This document shows positions 15,015 through 49,687 of a stretch of 64,000 nt of DNA, piece after piece (position 1 is the stretch's first letter; every line of letters begins with the position of its first letter). The notes under the pieces were generated by a model. It was not told the DNA's origin. It did no database searches and saw only the letters and a program-made list of their open reading frames with translations. The translations under genes and the position numbers were made by a program. The stretch is taken from assembly GCF_963678835.1 (NCBI RefSeq), contig NZ_OY787469.1, positions 620,001 to 684,000 of the forward strand, in the 5' to 3' direction. The stretch comes from an uncultured Desulfuromonas sp. GTDB taxonomy: Bacteria; Desulfobacterota; Desulfuromonadia; Desulfuromonadales; Desulfuromonadaceae.

Positions 15015-15359
15015 GTGTTGGTGTTAGCGATGTTGTGGCACTCAACACTTACGGGCTTGTTACGTCAGATGCCTGGCGTAGAAATAGAGACAATTGGCTT
15101 TGATGAGGATCACCTTCATATGGTCATGATTATCCCACCGAAATATTCGATTTCACATGTCATGGGGAAATTGAAGGACCAATCGTCGTCGAGAATGCGG
15201 AAGAAGTTCAAATGGTTATCAAAAGTCTATTGGTTGGAAAACGTCACGTGGTCGCCGGGCTATTTTGTTAGTAGCGTCGGAGTTGACGAAGAAACTATCA
15301 AAAGATACGTGGAGTACCAAGGACGCCAGGATTCAGGTCAGCACCGTGAGGTGCTGTGA
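15015..15359 (+). pseudogene. tnpA: IS200/IS605-type TnpA fragment (N-terminus missing)
   Basis: This 114-residue frame starts with an unconvincing GTG and contains the HUH motif (DHLHMVMIIPPKYSIS). It also has the downstream helix and strand blocks YFVSSVGVDEETIKRYVEYQ of Y1 single-strand transposases. The usual first 30 or so residues (SHTVYxxxYHxVWCTKYR type) are absent, replaced by the tail of the IS481-like remnant. TnpA cuts and joins single-stranded DNA at subterminal hairpins. A matching right-end hairpin lies at 15403-15420. Confidence 0.75.
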
Positions 15360-37075: not shown

Positions 37076-37100
37076 TAGAGAGTTAGTTTATCGCCTTAAT

Positions 37101-37795
37101 TCTTCCGTTTAACAGCACTGAACGCAATGAATGTCAGCGCGGTGTAAGAGAATGGAGCGAGGGAACCCGATAGGGTGCAATGACGGATGTCGTGCTCCCC
37201 TTTTATCGACGCAAAGGGGAGCAACGTGTGGGCGCGGAAGCCTACGTCATGTGGGGGCCACCATCGCGAATAGATGATGTTCGCCAGAGCAATCCGTTCC
37301 GAATGACGAACCATTGAAGATCAAGACCAAAGTCAAAGTCGCCGGGTCTCGGCCCGGCGGGCGATATCCTTTTGACTGGACGCTCAAAAGGATGCAAAAA
37401 CCGGCTGGACTTCTCCTGAACCTGAATTCACCGACAGTGAATCGTTTTCCGTCATACGTCACAGGTCCAGCTCGTCGCCCTTCAGGTCGACGAATCGTGC
37501 ACATCAGAAATTCTGGCGTAAAACCTTGATAAGGTTTTGCCGCTGTCCCGAATGGCGCTAGCTTAAAGGGAAAAAGCAGCAAAAACGGGACGGTCCCCGC
37601 ACGGGGGCTGTCCCAGGCTTTTGCGGTGCAAACCACCAGCGTTCCATAGCCCGCAAACATCTGGGACAGCCCCAGATAGGGCTTGGGACAGTCCCGAGTT
37701 TGCTACGAAAGTGCTTAAACTAGCGCCATTCGCCGCTCTCCCTATTTTTTTCGTGGCACCGATTAAGCGGGTGGGCAATGCTCACCCTTTCCGAG
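37101..37795. repeat. solo copy of the ~575-bp non-coding repeat family
   Basis: This stretch (in the 904-bp gap 37076-37979) matches the tandem units at 46870-49034. It shares a TTCCGTTTAACAGCACTGAA-type start, GTAAGAGAATGGAGCGAGGG, the hairpin CCCCTTTT-TCGACG-CAAAGGGG, GGGCGCGGAAGCC, a short hexamer tract (GATCAAGACCAAAGTCAAAG), the GCCGGGTCTCGGCCCGGC hairpin, and ATCCTTTTGACTGGACGCTC pairing with TCAAAAGGAT. The right part is interrupted by a MITE-like insertion (37550-37731), after which the unit resumes with CGTGGCACCGATTAAGCGGG. No coding gene is credible here. From 37796 to 37979 nothing is recognised. Confidence 0.8.
37550..37731. mobile_element. MITE-like 182-bp insertion with terminal inverted repeats
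   Basis: Ends are GAATGGCGCTAGCTTAA (37550-37566) and TTAAACTAGCGCCATTC (37715-37731), inverted repeats with one mismatch in 17. Flanks are GCCGCTGTCCC (37539-37549) and GCCGCTCTCCC (37732-37742), an 11-bp near-perfect target duplication. The interior has no gene but several GGGACAG/CTGTCCC palindromic blocks. It lies within the solo repeat; the tandem copies lack it, which shows the empty site. Confidence 0.75.
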
Positions 37796-37979
37796 TCTGT
37801 TATCTCGCGCCTCAGTCTGCCTATCGTTAAGCACTATTTTTCAAAAATATGAGCTAAGTCCTTTTGCTGTCGTCCTTTTTGCTGGAAAACGGGAAACTTT
37901 GTGATATAGTTCTATCGTTAAACGTGTTGTTTTTACGTCACAAAGCAATCCTCGGTGTCATTTCGGGGAGGAGTGATTT

Positions 37980-44729: not shown

Positions 44730-46856
44730 ATGGCGGACCCCATCAAGCACAAACGGTTAAAAAAAGAACTGCGTCTGCTCGATGTCTATGCCATTGCCAC
44801 AGGCGCAACACTCAGTGCCGGTTTTTTTCTGTTGCCGGGAATAGCGGCACAGCAAGCCGGTCCTGCCCTGATTCTCGCTTATGCCATTGCTGCATTGCCC
44901 CTGTTCCCCGCCATGTTCAGTATTCTCGAGTTGGCCACGGCCATGCCGCGTGCCGGTGGCGTTTATTATTTTCTCGACCGAGCACTTGGTCCGGCCTGGG
45001 GAACCATTGGCGGATTGGGCACCTGGCTGGCTCTGATTCTCAAAGTGGCCTTCGCCCTGGTCGGCATGGGGGCGTACATTGCCCTGTACATGCCGGAACT
45101 GCACATTGTTCCCGTCGCAGTGATCACCGCTCTGGCCCTTGGTGCCCTCAGCCTGTTTGGGGCCGGAAAAGGGGGGCGCCTGCAGATCCTCCTGGTGATT
45201 GGGTTGCTGGTGTTGCTGGCCGTGTTCTTTGGTGCTGGTGGGATGCAGCTTCAGGCCGCCAATTTTGAAGGTTTTCTCGCCTCAGGAGTGGACGCGATCC
45301 TGTCCACGGCCGGATTGGTTTACATCAGCTATGTCGGTGTGACAAAAGTTGCCAGTTTGTCCGAAGAGGTCAAAGACCCGGAACGCAATCTGCCACGGGG
45401 AGTGATCCTTGCCTTGACAACGGCCGTGGGCGTTTATCTGGTTGGCACCACTATTATTGTCGGTCTGGTTCCTCAGGCCGAGCTGCAGGGCAGTCTGACG
45501 CCTGTGGCTGTCGCGGCTGATTATGCGCTGGGGGAGACCGGTAAGCTGCTGCTGTCCGTCGCCGCACTGCTGGCGTTTATCTCCGTCGCCAATGCCGGGA
45601 TGATGAGTGCGTCGCGGTATCCGTTGGCCATGAGTCGCGACCATCTGCTGCCGTCGGTTTTCCGTCGCCTCGGCCGGTTTGGTTCACCCACCAATGCCAT
45701 TCTAGTGACCTTACTGGTCCTTGTGGCGACCATTGTCTTCTTTGATCCGGTAAAGATTGCCAAGTTGGCCAGTGCTTTTCAGTTGCTGATGTTTGCTTTG
45801 GTGTGTGCCGCGGTTATTGTGATGCGTGAAAGCCGTATCGATTCATACGATCCCGGTTACAAATCGCCCTTTTACCCGTGGATGCAGATTGCCGGCATTG
45901 TTTTTCCGATGATTCTTATCGTTGAGATGGGAACCGTGTCGATCGTGTTTTCACTTGCCCTGATTCTGGTGTCCGTCGTCTGGTACCTTTCCTATGGCAA
46001 ACCGCGTGTCGCACGCACTGGAGCGATCTTCCACGTGTTTGAGCGGTTGGGACATCTGCGCTACCAGGGGCTTGACACCGAGTTGCGTGGCATTCTTAAA
46101 GAGAAGGGGCTGCGTGATGATGATCCGTTTGATGAGATTCTGCTGCGCAGTCAGGTGATTGACCTTGAAGAGGAGTGCTCCTTTGAAGCCGCCTTGACCA
46201 TTGCCGCCCACAAGCTGGAAAAGGTGATTCCATTGACCAGTGACGAGATCGTCGAGCAGATTATGGTTGGCACCCGCATTGGTGCGACACCGGTGACGCG
46301 TGGGGTGGCCTTGCCCCATTTTCGCTCCACAGCCATCAGTCAATCGGAAATGGTGCTGATGCGTGCCCGCAATGGTGTGCGCATGGCCCGCTACAATCCA
46401 CAAACCCTCGAAGAGGAGGGCAGCCAGAGGGTTAAGGCGCTGTTTTTTCTTGTCAGTCCCGACAGTAACCCTTCGCAGCATTTGCGCATTCTAGCGCGCA
46501 TTGCTGAACGGGTTGATGAAGAGAGCTTTGCGGATCAATGGCTGGGGGCGCAGCAGCGTAACGCGCTTAAAGAGGCGCTGCTGCAAAGTGATCGTTTTCT
46601 GTTGTTGTGTCTGGACGATGAGACTCCGACCCATGAGTTGATCGGTCGACCGTTGCACGATGTGGTGTTTGGTGAAGGGTGCCTGGTGGCGTTTCTGACC
46701 CGGCGCGGGAAAACCTTTGTTCCCAACGGGCGGACCTTGTTGCTTGAGGGAGATCGTCTGACGGTGATTGGTGATGAGACGGCACTCAATGATATTCGGC
46801 GTCGTTATCAGCCGGATGGCGCGACCTGTTCTACGGAGCAAAGTTTGGAAGAATAA
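44730..46856 (+). CDS. APC-superfamily transporter fused to EIIA-like and RCK_C-like domains
   Basis: This 708-residue protein starts at ATG 44730 with AGGAG at 44721; an upstream in-frame start at 44685 is rejected. Residues about 15-430 form an amino-acid/polyamine permease with 11-12 helices (ATGATLSAGFFLLPG helix-break, EEVKDPERNLPRG loop). Residues about 455-610 resemble a PTS EIIA type-2 domain, with His530 in GVALPHFRS at the phospho-His position. Residues about 630-700 resemble a TrkA-C/RCK_C ligand-binding domain (GRPLHDVVFGEGCLVAFLTR, LLLEGDRLTVIGD). The fusion suggests import controlled by PTS-Ntr-like phosphorylation and a small ligand. Substrate unknown. Confidence 0.85.
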   Translation: MADPIKHKRLKKELRLLDVYAIATGATLSAGFFLLPGIAAQQAGPALILAYAIAALPLFPAMFSILELATAMPRAGGVYYFLDRALGPAWGTIGGLGTWLALILKVAFALVGMGAYIALYMPELHIVPVAVITALALGALSLFGAGKGGRLQILLVIGLLVLLAVFFGAGGMQLQAANFEGFLASGVDAILSTAGLVYISYVGVTKVASLSEEVKDPERNLPRGVILALTTAVGVYLVGTTIIVGLVPQAELQGSLTPVAVAADYALGETGKLLLSVAALLAFISVANAGMMSASRYPLAMSRDHLLPSVFRRLGRFGSPTNAILVTLLVLVATIVFFDPVKIAKLASAFQLLMFALVCAAVIVMRESRIDSYDPGYKSPFYPWMQIAGIVFPMILIVEMGTVSIVFSLALILVSVVWYLSYGKPRVARTGAIFHVFERLGHLRYQGLDTELRGILKEKGLRDDDPFDEILLRSQVIDLEEECSFEAALTIAAHKLEKVIPLTSDEIVEQIMVGTRIGATPVTRGVALPHFRSTAISQSEMVLMRARNGVRMARYNPQTLEEEGSQRVKALFFLVSPDSNPSQHLRILARIAERVDEESFADQWLGAQQRNALKEALLQSDRFLLLCLDDETPTHELIGRPLHDVVFGEGCLVAFLTRRGKTFVPNGRTLLLEGDRLTVIGDETALNDIRRRYQPDGATCSTEQSLEE

Positions 46857-46869
46857 TTTGAGTCTTCCT

Positions 46870-47023
46870 GACCAAGACCAAGACCAAGACCAAGACCAAG
46901 ACCAAGACCAGGACCAGGACCAGGACCAGGACCAGGACCAGGACCAAAACCAGGACCAGGACCAGGACCAGGACCAGGACCAAAACCAGGACCAAAACCA
47001 AAACCAAAACCAAAACCAAAACC
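46870..47023 (+). repeat. hexanucleotide microsatellite (RACCAR)n
   Basis: About 25 consecutive hexamers change along the tract from GACCAA to GACCAG to AACCAA. It starts 14 bp after the transporter stop codon and ends exactly where the first tandem-repeat core (GCCGGGTCTCG at 47024) begins. Other units of the family carry only two to four such hexamers at the same place. All six frames are open in places, giving DQDQ-like frames that are not genes. Confidence 0.95.
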
Positions 47024-47310
47024 GCCGGGTCTCGTCCCGGCAGCCGACATCCTTTTGACTGGCCGCTCAAAAGGATGCAAAAACCAGCTTGAACACCTCC
47101 TGAACCTGGATTAACCGACACTGTGTCTGTTTCCGTTATGCGTCCAGATTCGGCTCGCCGCCCTTTAGGTCGGCGAATCGTGCAATTCATCGTCTTTGGC
47201 GTAAAACGGTGATAACAATCTTCAGTCGCGCTCTATCTCTGGTGTGGCACCGATCAAATGGGCGGGACGGTGCCCGCCCTGCAGTCGTGTGTTATTAAGC
47301 AGCCCAGCCC
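46870..47310. repeat. tandem non-coding repeat, copy 1 (left-truncated)
   Basis: It begins within the unit at the hexamer tract and contains the hairpin GCCGGGTCTCGTCCCGGC. A perfect 11-bp hairpin CATCCTTTTGA/TCAAAAGGATG sits at 47048-47077, with the pairing GATTCGGCTCGCCG...CGGCGAATC and GGGCGGGACGGTGCCCGCCC near the right end. The part of the unit before the hexamer tract is missing. Confidence 0.88.
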
Positions 47311-47883
47311 TCCCGTTCAGCAGCACCGAACGCAATGAACGTCAGCGCGATGGTTGTCGGCAACCTGTTTGAGCGGTAGCGAGTTTTGCCGACATCGCGA
47401 TGTAAGAGAATGGAGTGAGGGAACCCGCAGGGTGCAATGACGGGAGTCGATTTTGCGCCCCTTTTGTCGACGCAAAAGGGGTCCGACGTGCGGGCGCGGA
47501 AGCCCGCGTCACGTGGGTACCACCATCGCGAACGGATGAAGTTTGCCAGAGCGATTCGTTTCGTATTACGAACCACTGAATGTCAAAGTCAAGACCGCCG
47601 GGTCTCGTCCCGGCAGCCGACATCCTTTTGACTGGCCGCTCAAAAGGATGCAAAAACCAGCTTGAACACCTCCTGAACCTGGATTAACCGACACTGTGTC
47701 TGTTTCCGTTATGCGTCCAGATTCGGCTCGCCGCCCTTTAGGTCGACGAATCATGCAACTCATCATCTCTGGCGTAAAATGTTGATGACAATCTTAAGTC
47801 GCGCTCTACCTCTGGTGTGGCACCGATCAAACGGGCGGGACGGTGCCCGCCCTGCAGTCGTGTGTTATTAAGCAGCCCAGCCC
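47311..47883. repeat. tandem non-coding repeat, copy 2 (complete, 573 bp)
   Basis: The most complete unit runs from TCCCGTTCAGCAGCACCGAA through GTAAGAGAATGGAGTGAGGG, the CCCCTTTTG/CAAAAGGGG hairpin near 47458, CGGGCGCGGAAGCCCG and a two-to-three-unit hexamer tract at 47580-47596. It then continues with the GCCGGG and CATCCTTTTGA hairpins. It is nearly identical to copy 3. Frames in it are short and not conserved by codon pattern. Confidence 0.9.
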
Positions 47884-48466
47884 TCCCGTTCAGCAGCACC
47901 GAACGCAATGAACGTCAGCGCAATGGTTGTCGGCAACCTGTTTGAGCGGTAGCGAGTTTTGCCGACATTGCGATGTAAGAGAATGGAGAGAGGGAACCCG
48001 ATAGGGTGCAATGACGGGAGTCGATTTTGCGGTACTTTTGTCGACGCAAAAGGGGTCCGACGGGCGGGCGCGGAAGCCCGCGTCACGTGGGTACCACCAT
48101 CGCGAACGGATGAAGTTTGCCAGAGCGATTCGTTTCGTATTACGAACCACTGAATCTCAAGATCAAAGCCAAGGTCGCCAGGTCTCGTCCCGGCAGCCGA
48201 CATCCTTTTGACTGGCCGCTCAAAAGGATGCAAAAACCGGCTGAACACCTCCTGTCCCTCAGATTAACCTACAATGAGTTTGTTTCCGTTATGCTTCACG
48301 GATTCGGCTCGCCGCCCTTTAGGTCGGCGAATCGTGTAACTCATCAGCTCTGGTGTAAAATGTTGACAACAGTTTGACGCCGTTCTCTTTTTTTTTTTCG
48401 TGGCTCCAATTAAACGGGCGGGACGGTGCCCGCCCTGCAGTCGTGTGTTATTAAGCAGCCAAGCCC
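47884..48466. repeat. tandem non-coding repeat, copy 3 (complete, 583 bp)
   Basis: It is nearly identical to copy 2 through its first 290 bp, then slightly more diverged. The hexamer tract at 48154-48176 reads CTCAAGATCAAAGCCAAGGT. The core hairpins are retained. A pyrimidine tract (CTCTTTTTTTTTTCG) near 48385 replaces CTCTACCTCTGG of copy 2. Confidence 0.9.
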
Positions 48467-49034
48467 TCCCGTTCAGCAGCACCGAACGAAGAGAACGGTC
48501 ATCGTCGGCAACCGGTTTGAGGACTGATGCCGACGGGGCGAGTTTTTCCGCCATCGCGGTGTAAGTGAACGCAGAGAGGGAACCCGTAGGGTGCAATGGG
48601 GTTGTTATGAATCAGAAGAACGAGTGGTGTTACGTGAGATTTTTTGCGTCAGCAAGGCAGAGGGAGGAGCTATAGTCTTTCTATGGCGACGACCGATAAC
48701 GCGGCTGACGTGAAAAAGATCCGCAACAACACCGTGAAGGCTGATTGATGATAACCCCTTGGGAGTCGATTTTGCGCCCCTTTTGTCGACGCAAAAGGGG
48801 TCCGACGGGCGGGCGCGGAAGCCCGCGTCACGTGGGCACCAACTATGAGAACGGATGAAGTTCGCTGGTGCGATTCGTTTCAAGTTGCAAACCACTGAAG
48901 CTCAAGATCAAAGTCAATGAGTCTGTTTCCGTTATGCTTCACAGATTCGGCTCGCCGTCCTTTAGGTCGACGAATCGTGCAACGTATCATCTTTGGCGTA
49001 AAACGGGTGGGCAATGCCCACCCTGCCTAGGCGC
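48467..49034. repeat. tandem non-coding repeat, copy 4 (diverged, rearranged)
   Basis: It begins like the other units but carries about 170 bp of unrelated sequence (about 48600-48770) between GGGTGCAATG and GGAGTCGATTTTGCG. It also lacks the roughly 100-bp section with the GCCGGG and CATCCTTTTGA hairpins after its short hexamer tract (48900-48918). It ends with GTGGGCAATGCCCACCC near 49010-49025. Confidence 0.82.
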
Positions 49035-49120: not shown

Positions 49121-49687
49121 TTAACAGCGGGAGATAAAGCGATTCTCCCGTGTGTCCACTTTGATCCGCTCACCACTTTCCAGATAGCCCGGCACCTGGA
49201 TGGCCATGCCGGTTTCAAGGATCGCTTCCTTGGTTTGGGCTGTGGCTGTGGCGTTTTTGATCGAAGGCGCGGTTTCTTCTACCGTTAATTCGACGGTCAT
49301 TGGCAACTCCACCAGAACCACCATCTCATTGAAGACACCGAGTGTCACTTCAAGGCCGTCCGTTAGATAGCCCTTAATATCGTCAAACATTTCGCCGTTG
49401 ATCTCAAATTGTTCGTAACTTTCCATATCCATGAACACGCCGCTGTCGTCACCGGCAGCATACAGATATTGTCCTTTGCGGCGGGCAAAATCGGCCTCGT
49501 CGAGCTTATCGCCGGACTTGAAGGTTTTATTCAAAACCTGTCCAGTGAGCAGGTTGCGGTATTTGGTTTTCACTAAGGTGTTGCCGCCACGTGCTGTGGG
49601 TGATTGGAAGCTGACATCGAGGATGGAGCAGGGGGCATCGTCAAGCAGAGGCACCGTGCCACGTTTAAGATCGGAAGCGAGAATCAT
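49121..49687 (-). CDS. efpL: elongation factor P-like protein EfpL (YeiP type)
   Basis: This 188-residue three-domain EF-P-family protein has loop residues 29-37 reading SPTARGGNT with Arg33 at the tip. This fits the EfpL/YeiP branch, which relieves ribosome stalling without a Lys modification, rather than canonical EF-P. The conserved KYRNLLTGQVLNKTFKSGDK, QYLYAAGDDSGVFMDMESYE and the C-terminal GYLESGERIKVDTRENRFISR blocks confirm the family. AGGAG precedes the start. It is the last gene of the minus-strand series but has its own start site 184 bp from elbB, with a terminator between. Confidence 0.82.
   Translation of the reverse strand: MILASDLKRGTVPLLDDAPCSILDVSFQSPTARGGNTLVKTKYRNLLTGQVLNKTFKSGDKLDEADFARRKGQYLYAAGDDSGVFMDMESYEQFEINGEMFDDIKGYLTDGLEVTLGVFNEMVVLVELPMTVELTVEETAPSIKNATATAQTKEAILETGMAIQVPGYLESGERIKVDTRENRFISRC

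What the first reader, a model, noticed from the sequence alone, without database searches (positions are those of the whole stretch)
46870..49034. Four-copy tandem array of a ~575-bp non-coding, hairpin-rich repeat unit
Units 2 and 3 are nearly identical (573 and 583 bp). Unit 1 is left-truncated and unit 4 rearranged; a solo relative lies at 37101-37795. Conserved hairpins recur in every complete unit: CCCCTTTTG/CAAAAGGGG, a GCCGGG stem, an 11-bp CATCCTTTTGA/TCAAAAGGATG stem, and GGGCGG-GGTGCCCGCCC. Reading frames in the units are short and change between copies, so this looks like DNA or RNA structure rather than protein. I know no named element that fits. A mobile non-autonomous element, a structured RNA or a recombination-driven amplification are all possible.
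Basis: seen in the sequence. Interest (0 to 1): 0.75.

Follow-up and report, generated by a model that had tools for sequence, protein, structure and literature searches.

The report
Satellite-like hairpin repeats between bacterial genes
A 580-base non-coding unit full of small hairpins is repeated head to tail between genes at dozens of places in this Desulfuromonas-like bacterium; the places look old while the number of units at most of them differs between species, so it behaves like satellite DNA, and what it does is still unknown.

Summary
The array is real and belongs to a genome-wide family: the host genome has 163-172 matches to patterns from its first two hairpins, 0 in the reversed control. 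I mapped 47 clusters, 78,107 bp. A unit has module A (unit 1-300: hexamers, hairpins H1-H4) and module B (300-583: H6-H8; no H5 was counted); some units carry a 163-bp palindromic insert. Clusters are head to tail (0 of 41 mixed), lie downstream of genes (26 convergent, 18 tandem, 0 divergent of 44), and match no Rfam family. Stems are kept by changes on both sides. All 11 clusters whose two flanks could be placed in a sister species are occupied there, 9 of 11 with clearly different length (that sample is partly biased). Units at one site in two species are barely more alike than units at different sites (0.868 vs 0.854). Best reading: old insertions of REP-like hairpin modules, now a recombining bacterial satellite. 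Recent transposition, a known RNA and a RAYT partner are not supported. The two-hairpin core is order-wide, with relatives on betaproteobacterial megaplasmids. Function is unproven.

The parts
46869..47022 (+). hexamer tract (CAAGAC/CAGGAC/CAAAAC) that leads into the first A module
   Evidence: Sequence, repeats. The sister species G001 has a similar tract at the same site. In the 44 arrays where the script found a first H1, that hairpin is preceded by CAARRT-like hexamers (read by eye; its automatic counter failed).
47011..47583 (+). unit 1 (A + B)
47024..47041 (+). H1, GCCGGG/CCCGGC hairpin of module A
   Evidence: 99.1% Watson-Crick; in other genera GGCGGG/CCCGCC and GACGGG/CCCGTC
47048..47077 (+). 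H2, CATCCTTTTGA/TCAAAAGGATG hairpin
   Evidence: 96.5% Watson-Crick, 31 cells changed on both sides
47147..47179 (+). H3, GATTC..GCCG/CGGC..GAATC hairpin
   Evidence: 90.6% Watson-Crick, 20 cells changed on both sides
47260..47279 (+). H4, GGGCGGG/CCCGCCC hairpin near the A/B border
   Evidence: 97.5% Watson-Crick, 57 cells changed on both sides
47346..47399 (+). H6, CGCGAT..GTCGGCAA hairpin of module B, loop holding TGAGCGNNAGCGAG
   Evidence: 94.1% Watson-Crick, 54 cells changed on both sides; alignment
47446..47487 (+). H7, GTCG..CCCCTTTTG/CAAAAGGGG..CGAC hairpin
   Evidence: 92.9% Watson-Crick, 113 cells changed on both sides
47490..47507 (+). H8, GCGGGC/GCCCGC hairpin
   Evidence: 96.6% Watson-Crick, 28 cells changed on both sides
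47584..48163 (+). unit 2 (A + B)
48164..48911 (+). unit 3, with insert
   Evidence: unit positions 1-430 and 433-583 on either side of the insert
48598..48760 (+). 163-bp nested palindromic insert at unit position 430
   Evidence: folds as one long hairpin, -77 kcal/mol, z -8.5
48912..49027 (+). partial unit (unit 109-200 plus an H4 remnant) with the same outer junction as in sister species G001
37084..37833 (+). solo relative: B part, then A part, downstream of cysS
   Evidence: cysS by Pfam

Best explanation
A satellite-like intergenic repeat of REP-like hairpin modules. Shown: a composite unit of about 580 bp (A with hairpins H1-H4, B with H6-H8) sits strictly head to tail in dozens of intergenic places, with covarying stems and no recognised protein. 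Sites are old and array length is not. Inferred: the modules reached these places long ago by a mechanism I could not see. Since then RecA-type homologous recombination between identical units (unequal crossing over within an array, gene conversion or template exchange between arrays) adds, removes and replaces units. Only arrays that spare promoters survive, so they collect behind genes and between convergent genes. The stems are kept either because the single strand must fold, or because hairpins repair themselves by template switching during replication.
For: 163 and 172 pattern hits in the host genome, 0 in the reversed control. 47 mapped clusters, 78,107 bp; 0 of 41 multi-piece clusters in mixed orientation. 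Context 26 convergent, 18 tandem, 0 divergent of 44, against 13/66/21 for other intergenic gaps in the same loci (chi-square p 1.2e-8). Stem cells 91-99% Watson-Crick against 8-57% when slid; both-side changes 17 against 4.8 shuffled (A core) and 106 against 36.5 (H7-H8), 0 of 500 shuffles each. At the efp site G000 has three units and G001 one, with the same outer junction and hexamer prefix. 11 of 11 placeable sites are occupied in G001, 9 of 11 with clearly different length. Within-array identity 0.912 against 0.877 for shuffled labels, 0 of 1000. Orthologous-site units 0.868 against 0.854 for other sites, while the flanks of the placed sites are 83-98.5% identical.
Against: No empty site with a clean junction was found, so the founding step is unseen. 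The G001 regions outside contig C4 were picked near known hits, which favours occupied sites; 6 of the 11 sites lie on C4, chosen for synteny. 2 of 11 sites look alike in both species. Terminal units still show orthology: two of nine G001 units at shared sites match the orthologous G000 unit best, so replacement is incomplete. Best-match counts are biased by the larger G000 pool. Identity figures between species use only the first 330 nt of each unit. Gene context rests on a simple long-ORF caller.
Confidence: 0.6

Rival explanations
1. The hairpins act in RNA: arrays are transcribed from the flanking genes and serve as 3' end protectors, terminators or insulators between convergent genes.
For: No array between divergent genes (0 of 44). 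Stems covary. In B, G.T mismatches exceed A.C on the + strand (106 to 38; 21 to 8 positions, sign test p 0.024; unpaired sites 874 to 786), as expected if the + strand folds. On the minus strand H1 is followed by a T-rich tract.
Against: No orientation preference in tandem gaps (11 same, 7 opposite). In A the mismatch bias runs the other way (48 G.T to 155 A.C), with no bias by position (11 to 14). Whole-unit fold z -0.46. Promoter-like sites 1 against 1.2 expected, terminator-like sites 6 against 3.2 (sd 2.3) expected. No Rfam match above threshold. Cells are related copies, not independent events.
Confidence: 0.17
2. Neutral satellite: both-side changes come from template switching between hairpin arms during replication, with no selection on folding.
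For: Such a mechanism for keeping hairpins is in print (PMC8794818, seen as title and abstract start in the listing). One-sided mismatches are common at one H2 pair (19 C.T cells of about 150).
Against: No inverted loop seen by eye in the two alignments. The G.T excess in B is not expected from template switching. The two-hairpin core is found in 32 of 136 genomes of the order.
Confidence: 0.17
3. An active non-autonomous transposable element (MITE or REPIN-like) moved by an IS200/RAYT-type transposase.
For: Dispersed, intergenic, palindromic, high copy; the host genome has 27 Y1_Tnp matches. The 163-bp insert is palindromic and a diverged free copy lies beside an IS200-type gene.
Against: 11 of 11 placeable sites are shared with the sister species. 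No unit match at 20 fetched Y1_Tnp loci. Copy number does not follow transposase number: G001 has 113 unit matches and 4 Y1_Tnp matches, G008 57 and 8. Arrays are strictly head to tail.
Confidence: 0.06

Closest known systems
REP/BIME palindromes and REPINs (GTAG and CGTC superfamilies, PMC3733652, passages)
   Same: High-copy, intergenic, short GC-rich hairpins; paired hairpins; CGTC-type families have no dedicated transposase in that paper
   Different: Unit of about 580 bp with seven counted stems; strictly head-to-tail rather than alternating; no GTAG tag seen beside H1/H2; no RAYT link found
Pseudomonas fluorescens intergenic repeat families such as R178 and R200 (PMC2718517, passages and section 10)
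   Same: Long intergenic hairpin repeats with a tail-repeat-tail bias and few head-repeat-head cases
   Different: No tandem arrays of a composite unit reported in the passages I saw; sequences are in supplements that I could not read, so homology is untested
Multicopy nucleotide sequences of Geobacter bemidjiensis and Pelobacter carbinolicus (PMC2996986, PMC3543383; passages)
   Same: Related bacteria; intergenic; palindromic sequences and direct repeats of 6-42 nt
   Different: Catalogued in supplements that I could not read; no 580-bp arrays mentioned in the passages seen

Membership tests
REP/BIME | high copy number, extragenic, GC-rich hairpins | tested here: met
REP/BIME | copies in alternating orientation (BIME) | tested here: not met
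   0 of 41 multi-piece clusters in mixed orientation
REP/BIME | GTAG or CGTC tag beside the palindrome | tested here: inconclusive
   By eye no GTAG beside H1/H2; in other genera the minus strand reads GGCGTCT before the H1 stem (listing)
REP/BIME | RAYT gene flanked by the repeat | tested here: not met
   No unit match at E 0.01 in 20 Y1_Tnp loci (L062-L081); these are 20 of more than 80 Y1_Tnp matches listed, the rest were not examined
Known structured RNA (Rfam 15) | match above gathering score | tested here: not met
   0 matches in the window; best below threshold 15.5 bits against 72 needed
MITE | terminal inverted repeats and target-site duplication at an empty/filled site pair | tested here: inconclusive
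   No clean empty site among the orthologous loci looked at
Satellite DNA (tandem, homogenised) | head-to-tail arrays with copy-number change and within-array homogenisation | tested here: met
Pseudomonas R-family intergenic repeats | sequence homology | not testable with these tools

The most novel reading that the evidence does not exclude
An unnamed, widely conserved two-hairpin non-coding element (H1-H2, with relatives from Desulfuromonadales to betaproteobacterial megaplasmids) is selected for single-strand folding; in this genus it joined a second hairpin module and became a true bacterial satellite that marks and insulates convergent gene ends around the chromosome.
Probability: 0.15. 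Interest if true: 0.75.

Novelty: new variant of a known kind. Interest (0 to 1): 0.5.

Why it matters
Bacterial genomes are thought to hold little satellite-like DNA. Here 47 mapped clusters make 1.7% of the genome (78,107 of 4,525,000 bp); scaled by the hairpin count the total is perhaps 2.2% (estimate). Site age and array turnover can be read apart, so the family is a natural test of whether hairpin repeats are kept by selection on folding, by replication template switching, or by recombination alone.

Tried and rejected
Coding: eight ORFs across the array and solo gave no Pfam match above cut-off (two weak ones, PF05937 E 0.0035 and PF22807 E 0.0033, both below cut-off). Known RNA: rejected. 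Plasmids and phages with the unit: no match at E 0.001. Viral contigs with the B motif: two hits that by eye share only the short motif. RAYT partner: rejected for the 20 loci looked at. Replichore polarity: from the partial listing I saw no clear bias by eye; not tested formally. Automatic hexamer counting failed (all zeros); I read the printed flanks instead. E. coli genomes: none; a g11 copy (L111) against plasmids: none. Literature: four DNA strings gave one unrelated paper; satellite search gave two papers, a beetle satellite and gene amplification. First paper searches returned nothing on point. From memory I recall a like motif in gammaproteobacteria; that is recall, and only the betaproteobacterial plasmid hits bear on it.

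Full report
What is there. The window array (46869-49027) lies between a convergent pair: a permease/TrkA-C gene ending at 46856 and efp (49121-49687, minus strand; Pfam). It has two full units (96% identical), a third with a 163-bp insert, and a deleted tail piece. The solo relative lies downstream of cysS.

A genome-wide family. Blastn of one unit found 188 matches in the host genome, with only 40 of 109 candidates scored. Pattern searches that count the whole genome gave 163 (111 +, 52 -) for an H2 pattern and 172 (118 +, 54 -) for an H1-H2 pattern, both with 0 in the reversed control. I fetched 33 regions plus the window and mapped 47 clusters of at least 150 bp: 78,107 bp, 130 H2-containing pieces, median 1,677 bp, longest 3,005 bp. 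Of 41 clusters with two or more long pieces, none mixes strands. Several clusters elsewhere in the genome were not fetched.

Host. An exact core pattern in the named genome collection hit four contigs, all of one Desulfuromonas MAG (BM513); the window's own record may be left out there. I therefore call the host Desulfuromonas-like by inference. In its family 11 of 14 genomes, own included, match the unit, with 113 (G001), 64 (G005), 59 (G009), 57 (G008) and 41 (G006) matches against 188 in the host; three genomes have none.

Modules and insert. Module A runs from a CAARRT hexamer tract through H1-H4; module B carries H6-H8. B-like motifs without the genus-type A in front occur in other families of the order (8 of 277 class genomes match a B-hairpin pattern with up to 2 mismatches). 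The 163-bp insert sits at unit position 430/433. In fetched loci 45 insert hits were found: 44 touch unit sequence on one or both sides (two of them truncated) and one, beside an IS200-type gene in L076, is free-standing and diverged (E 1.3e-19). These loci were fetched for their units, so the sample is biased; of the 40 best insert matches in the host genome, 9 lie in regions I did not fetch. The insert folds as one long hairpin (z -8.5). It also occurs in unit context in G001 and G008 (L152, L157, L166), so units with and without it coexist across species.

Stems. On 132-160 distinct copies per stem, 91-99% of cells are Watson-Crick, against 8-57% when one arm is slid. Cells changed on both sides: H1 1, H2 31, H3 20, H4 57, H6 54, H7 113, H8 28. 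With shuffle controls: H1-H2 97.3% paired, 17 both-side cells against 4.8; H7-H8 97.5% paired, 106 against 36.5, 0 of 500 shuffles reaching either. In other genera H1 becomes GGCGGG/CCCGCC or GACGGG/CCCGTC. Related copies are not independent, and template switching could also produce such changes. The whole unit does not fold better than shuffles (34 of 100 fold at least as well). In B, G.T exceeds A.C on the + strand (106 to 38; one pair with T.G consensus left out), positions 21 to 8, p 0.024; in A the cells run the other way (48 to 155) but positions do not (11 to 14).

Context. Of 44 clusters with both neighbours called, 26 lie between convergent genes, 18 in tandem gaps (11 same direction, 7 opposite), 0 between divergent genes; other gaps in the same loci: 13, 66, 21 (p 1.2e-8). 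This matches the tail-repeat-tail bias described for Pseudomonas fluorescens repeats, which its authors explain as the least harmful place (section 10 of PMC2718517).

History. At the efp site G001 has one unit without insert, the same hexamer prefix and the same deleted tail piece with the same junction; G009 has a short remnant; G005, G008 and G006 show no match. Near cysS all of G000, G001, G008, G009, G005 and G006 have pieces, most of them small remnants. In 608.4 kb of G001, 11 of the 47 host clusters had both flanks placed; 11 of 11 are occupied; 9 have clearly different length, in each of these the host array is longer; 2 (L035, L036) look alike. Six of the eleven are on contig C4, taken for synteny; other regions were partly chosen around known hits. 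Within arrays units are more alike than under shuffled labels (0.912 against 0.877, 0 of 1000), but orthologous-site units (0.868, 28 pairs) are hardly closer than other-site units (0.854, 210 pairs) over their first 330 nt. Of 17 host units at shared sites, 13 have their best match at another site of the same genome, 4 in the same array and 0 in the orthologous array; of 9 G001 units at shared sites 2 match the orthologous array best (unequal pool sizes).

Wider relatives. An H1-H2 pattern with up to 2 mismatches is in 32 of 136 genomes of the order (14 of 53 genera), control 0 in each. A copy from G118 led to a Variovorax paradoxus megaplasmid (81.4% over 68 bp), and that piece to Comamonas, Iodobacter and Burkholderia plasmids. 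All of these places carry no annotated gene in the collection's table, which is incomplete.

Mechanism. Old insertion, then recombination within and between arrays, with purifying selection against promoter damage: the first step is inferred, turnover is shown at the efp site and by length change at nine sites, and the selection is inferred from context. Whether folding matters in RNA, in single-stranded DNA, or not at all stays open.

Noticed in passing
window 15015-15359: 114-aa ORF matching the C-terminal two thirds of the IS200-type transposase domain (Y1_Tnp positions 39-121), possibly a truncated copy.
   Followed up: no
window 37549-37732: Long palindrome with GGGACWGTCCC-like motifs nested in the solo repeat; a similar motif lies beside the B copy in L056.
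   Followed up: no
L076:1191-1349: Free-standing diverged relative of the 163-bp insert next to an IS200-type tnpA.
   Followed up: partly
G000 against G001: 27 Y1_Tnp matches in the host genome but 4 in G001, while both are rich in the repeat.
   Followed up: no
L039 about 3684: The array's right end abuts what looks like an insertion sequence reading MGRKIFTNEFKVEC (by eye), as if an IS cut the array.
   Followed up: no
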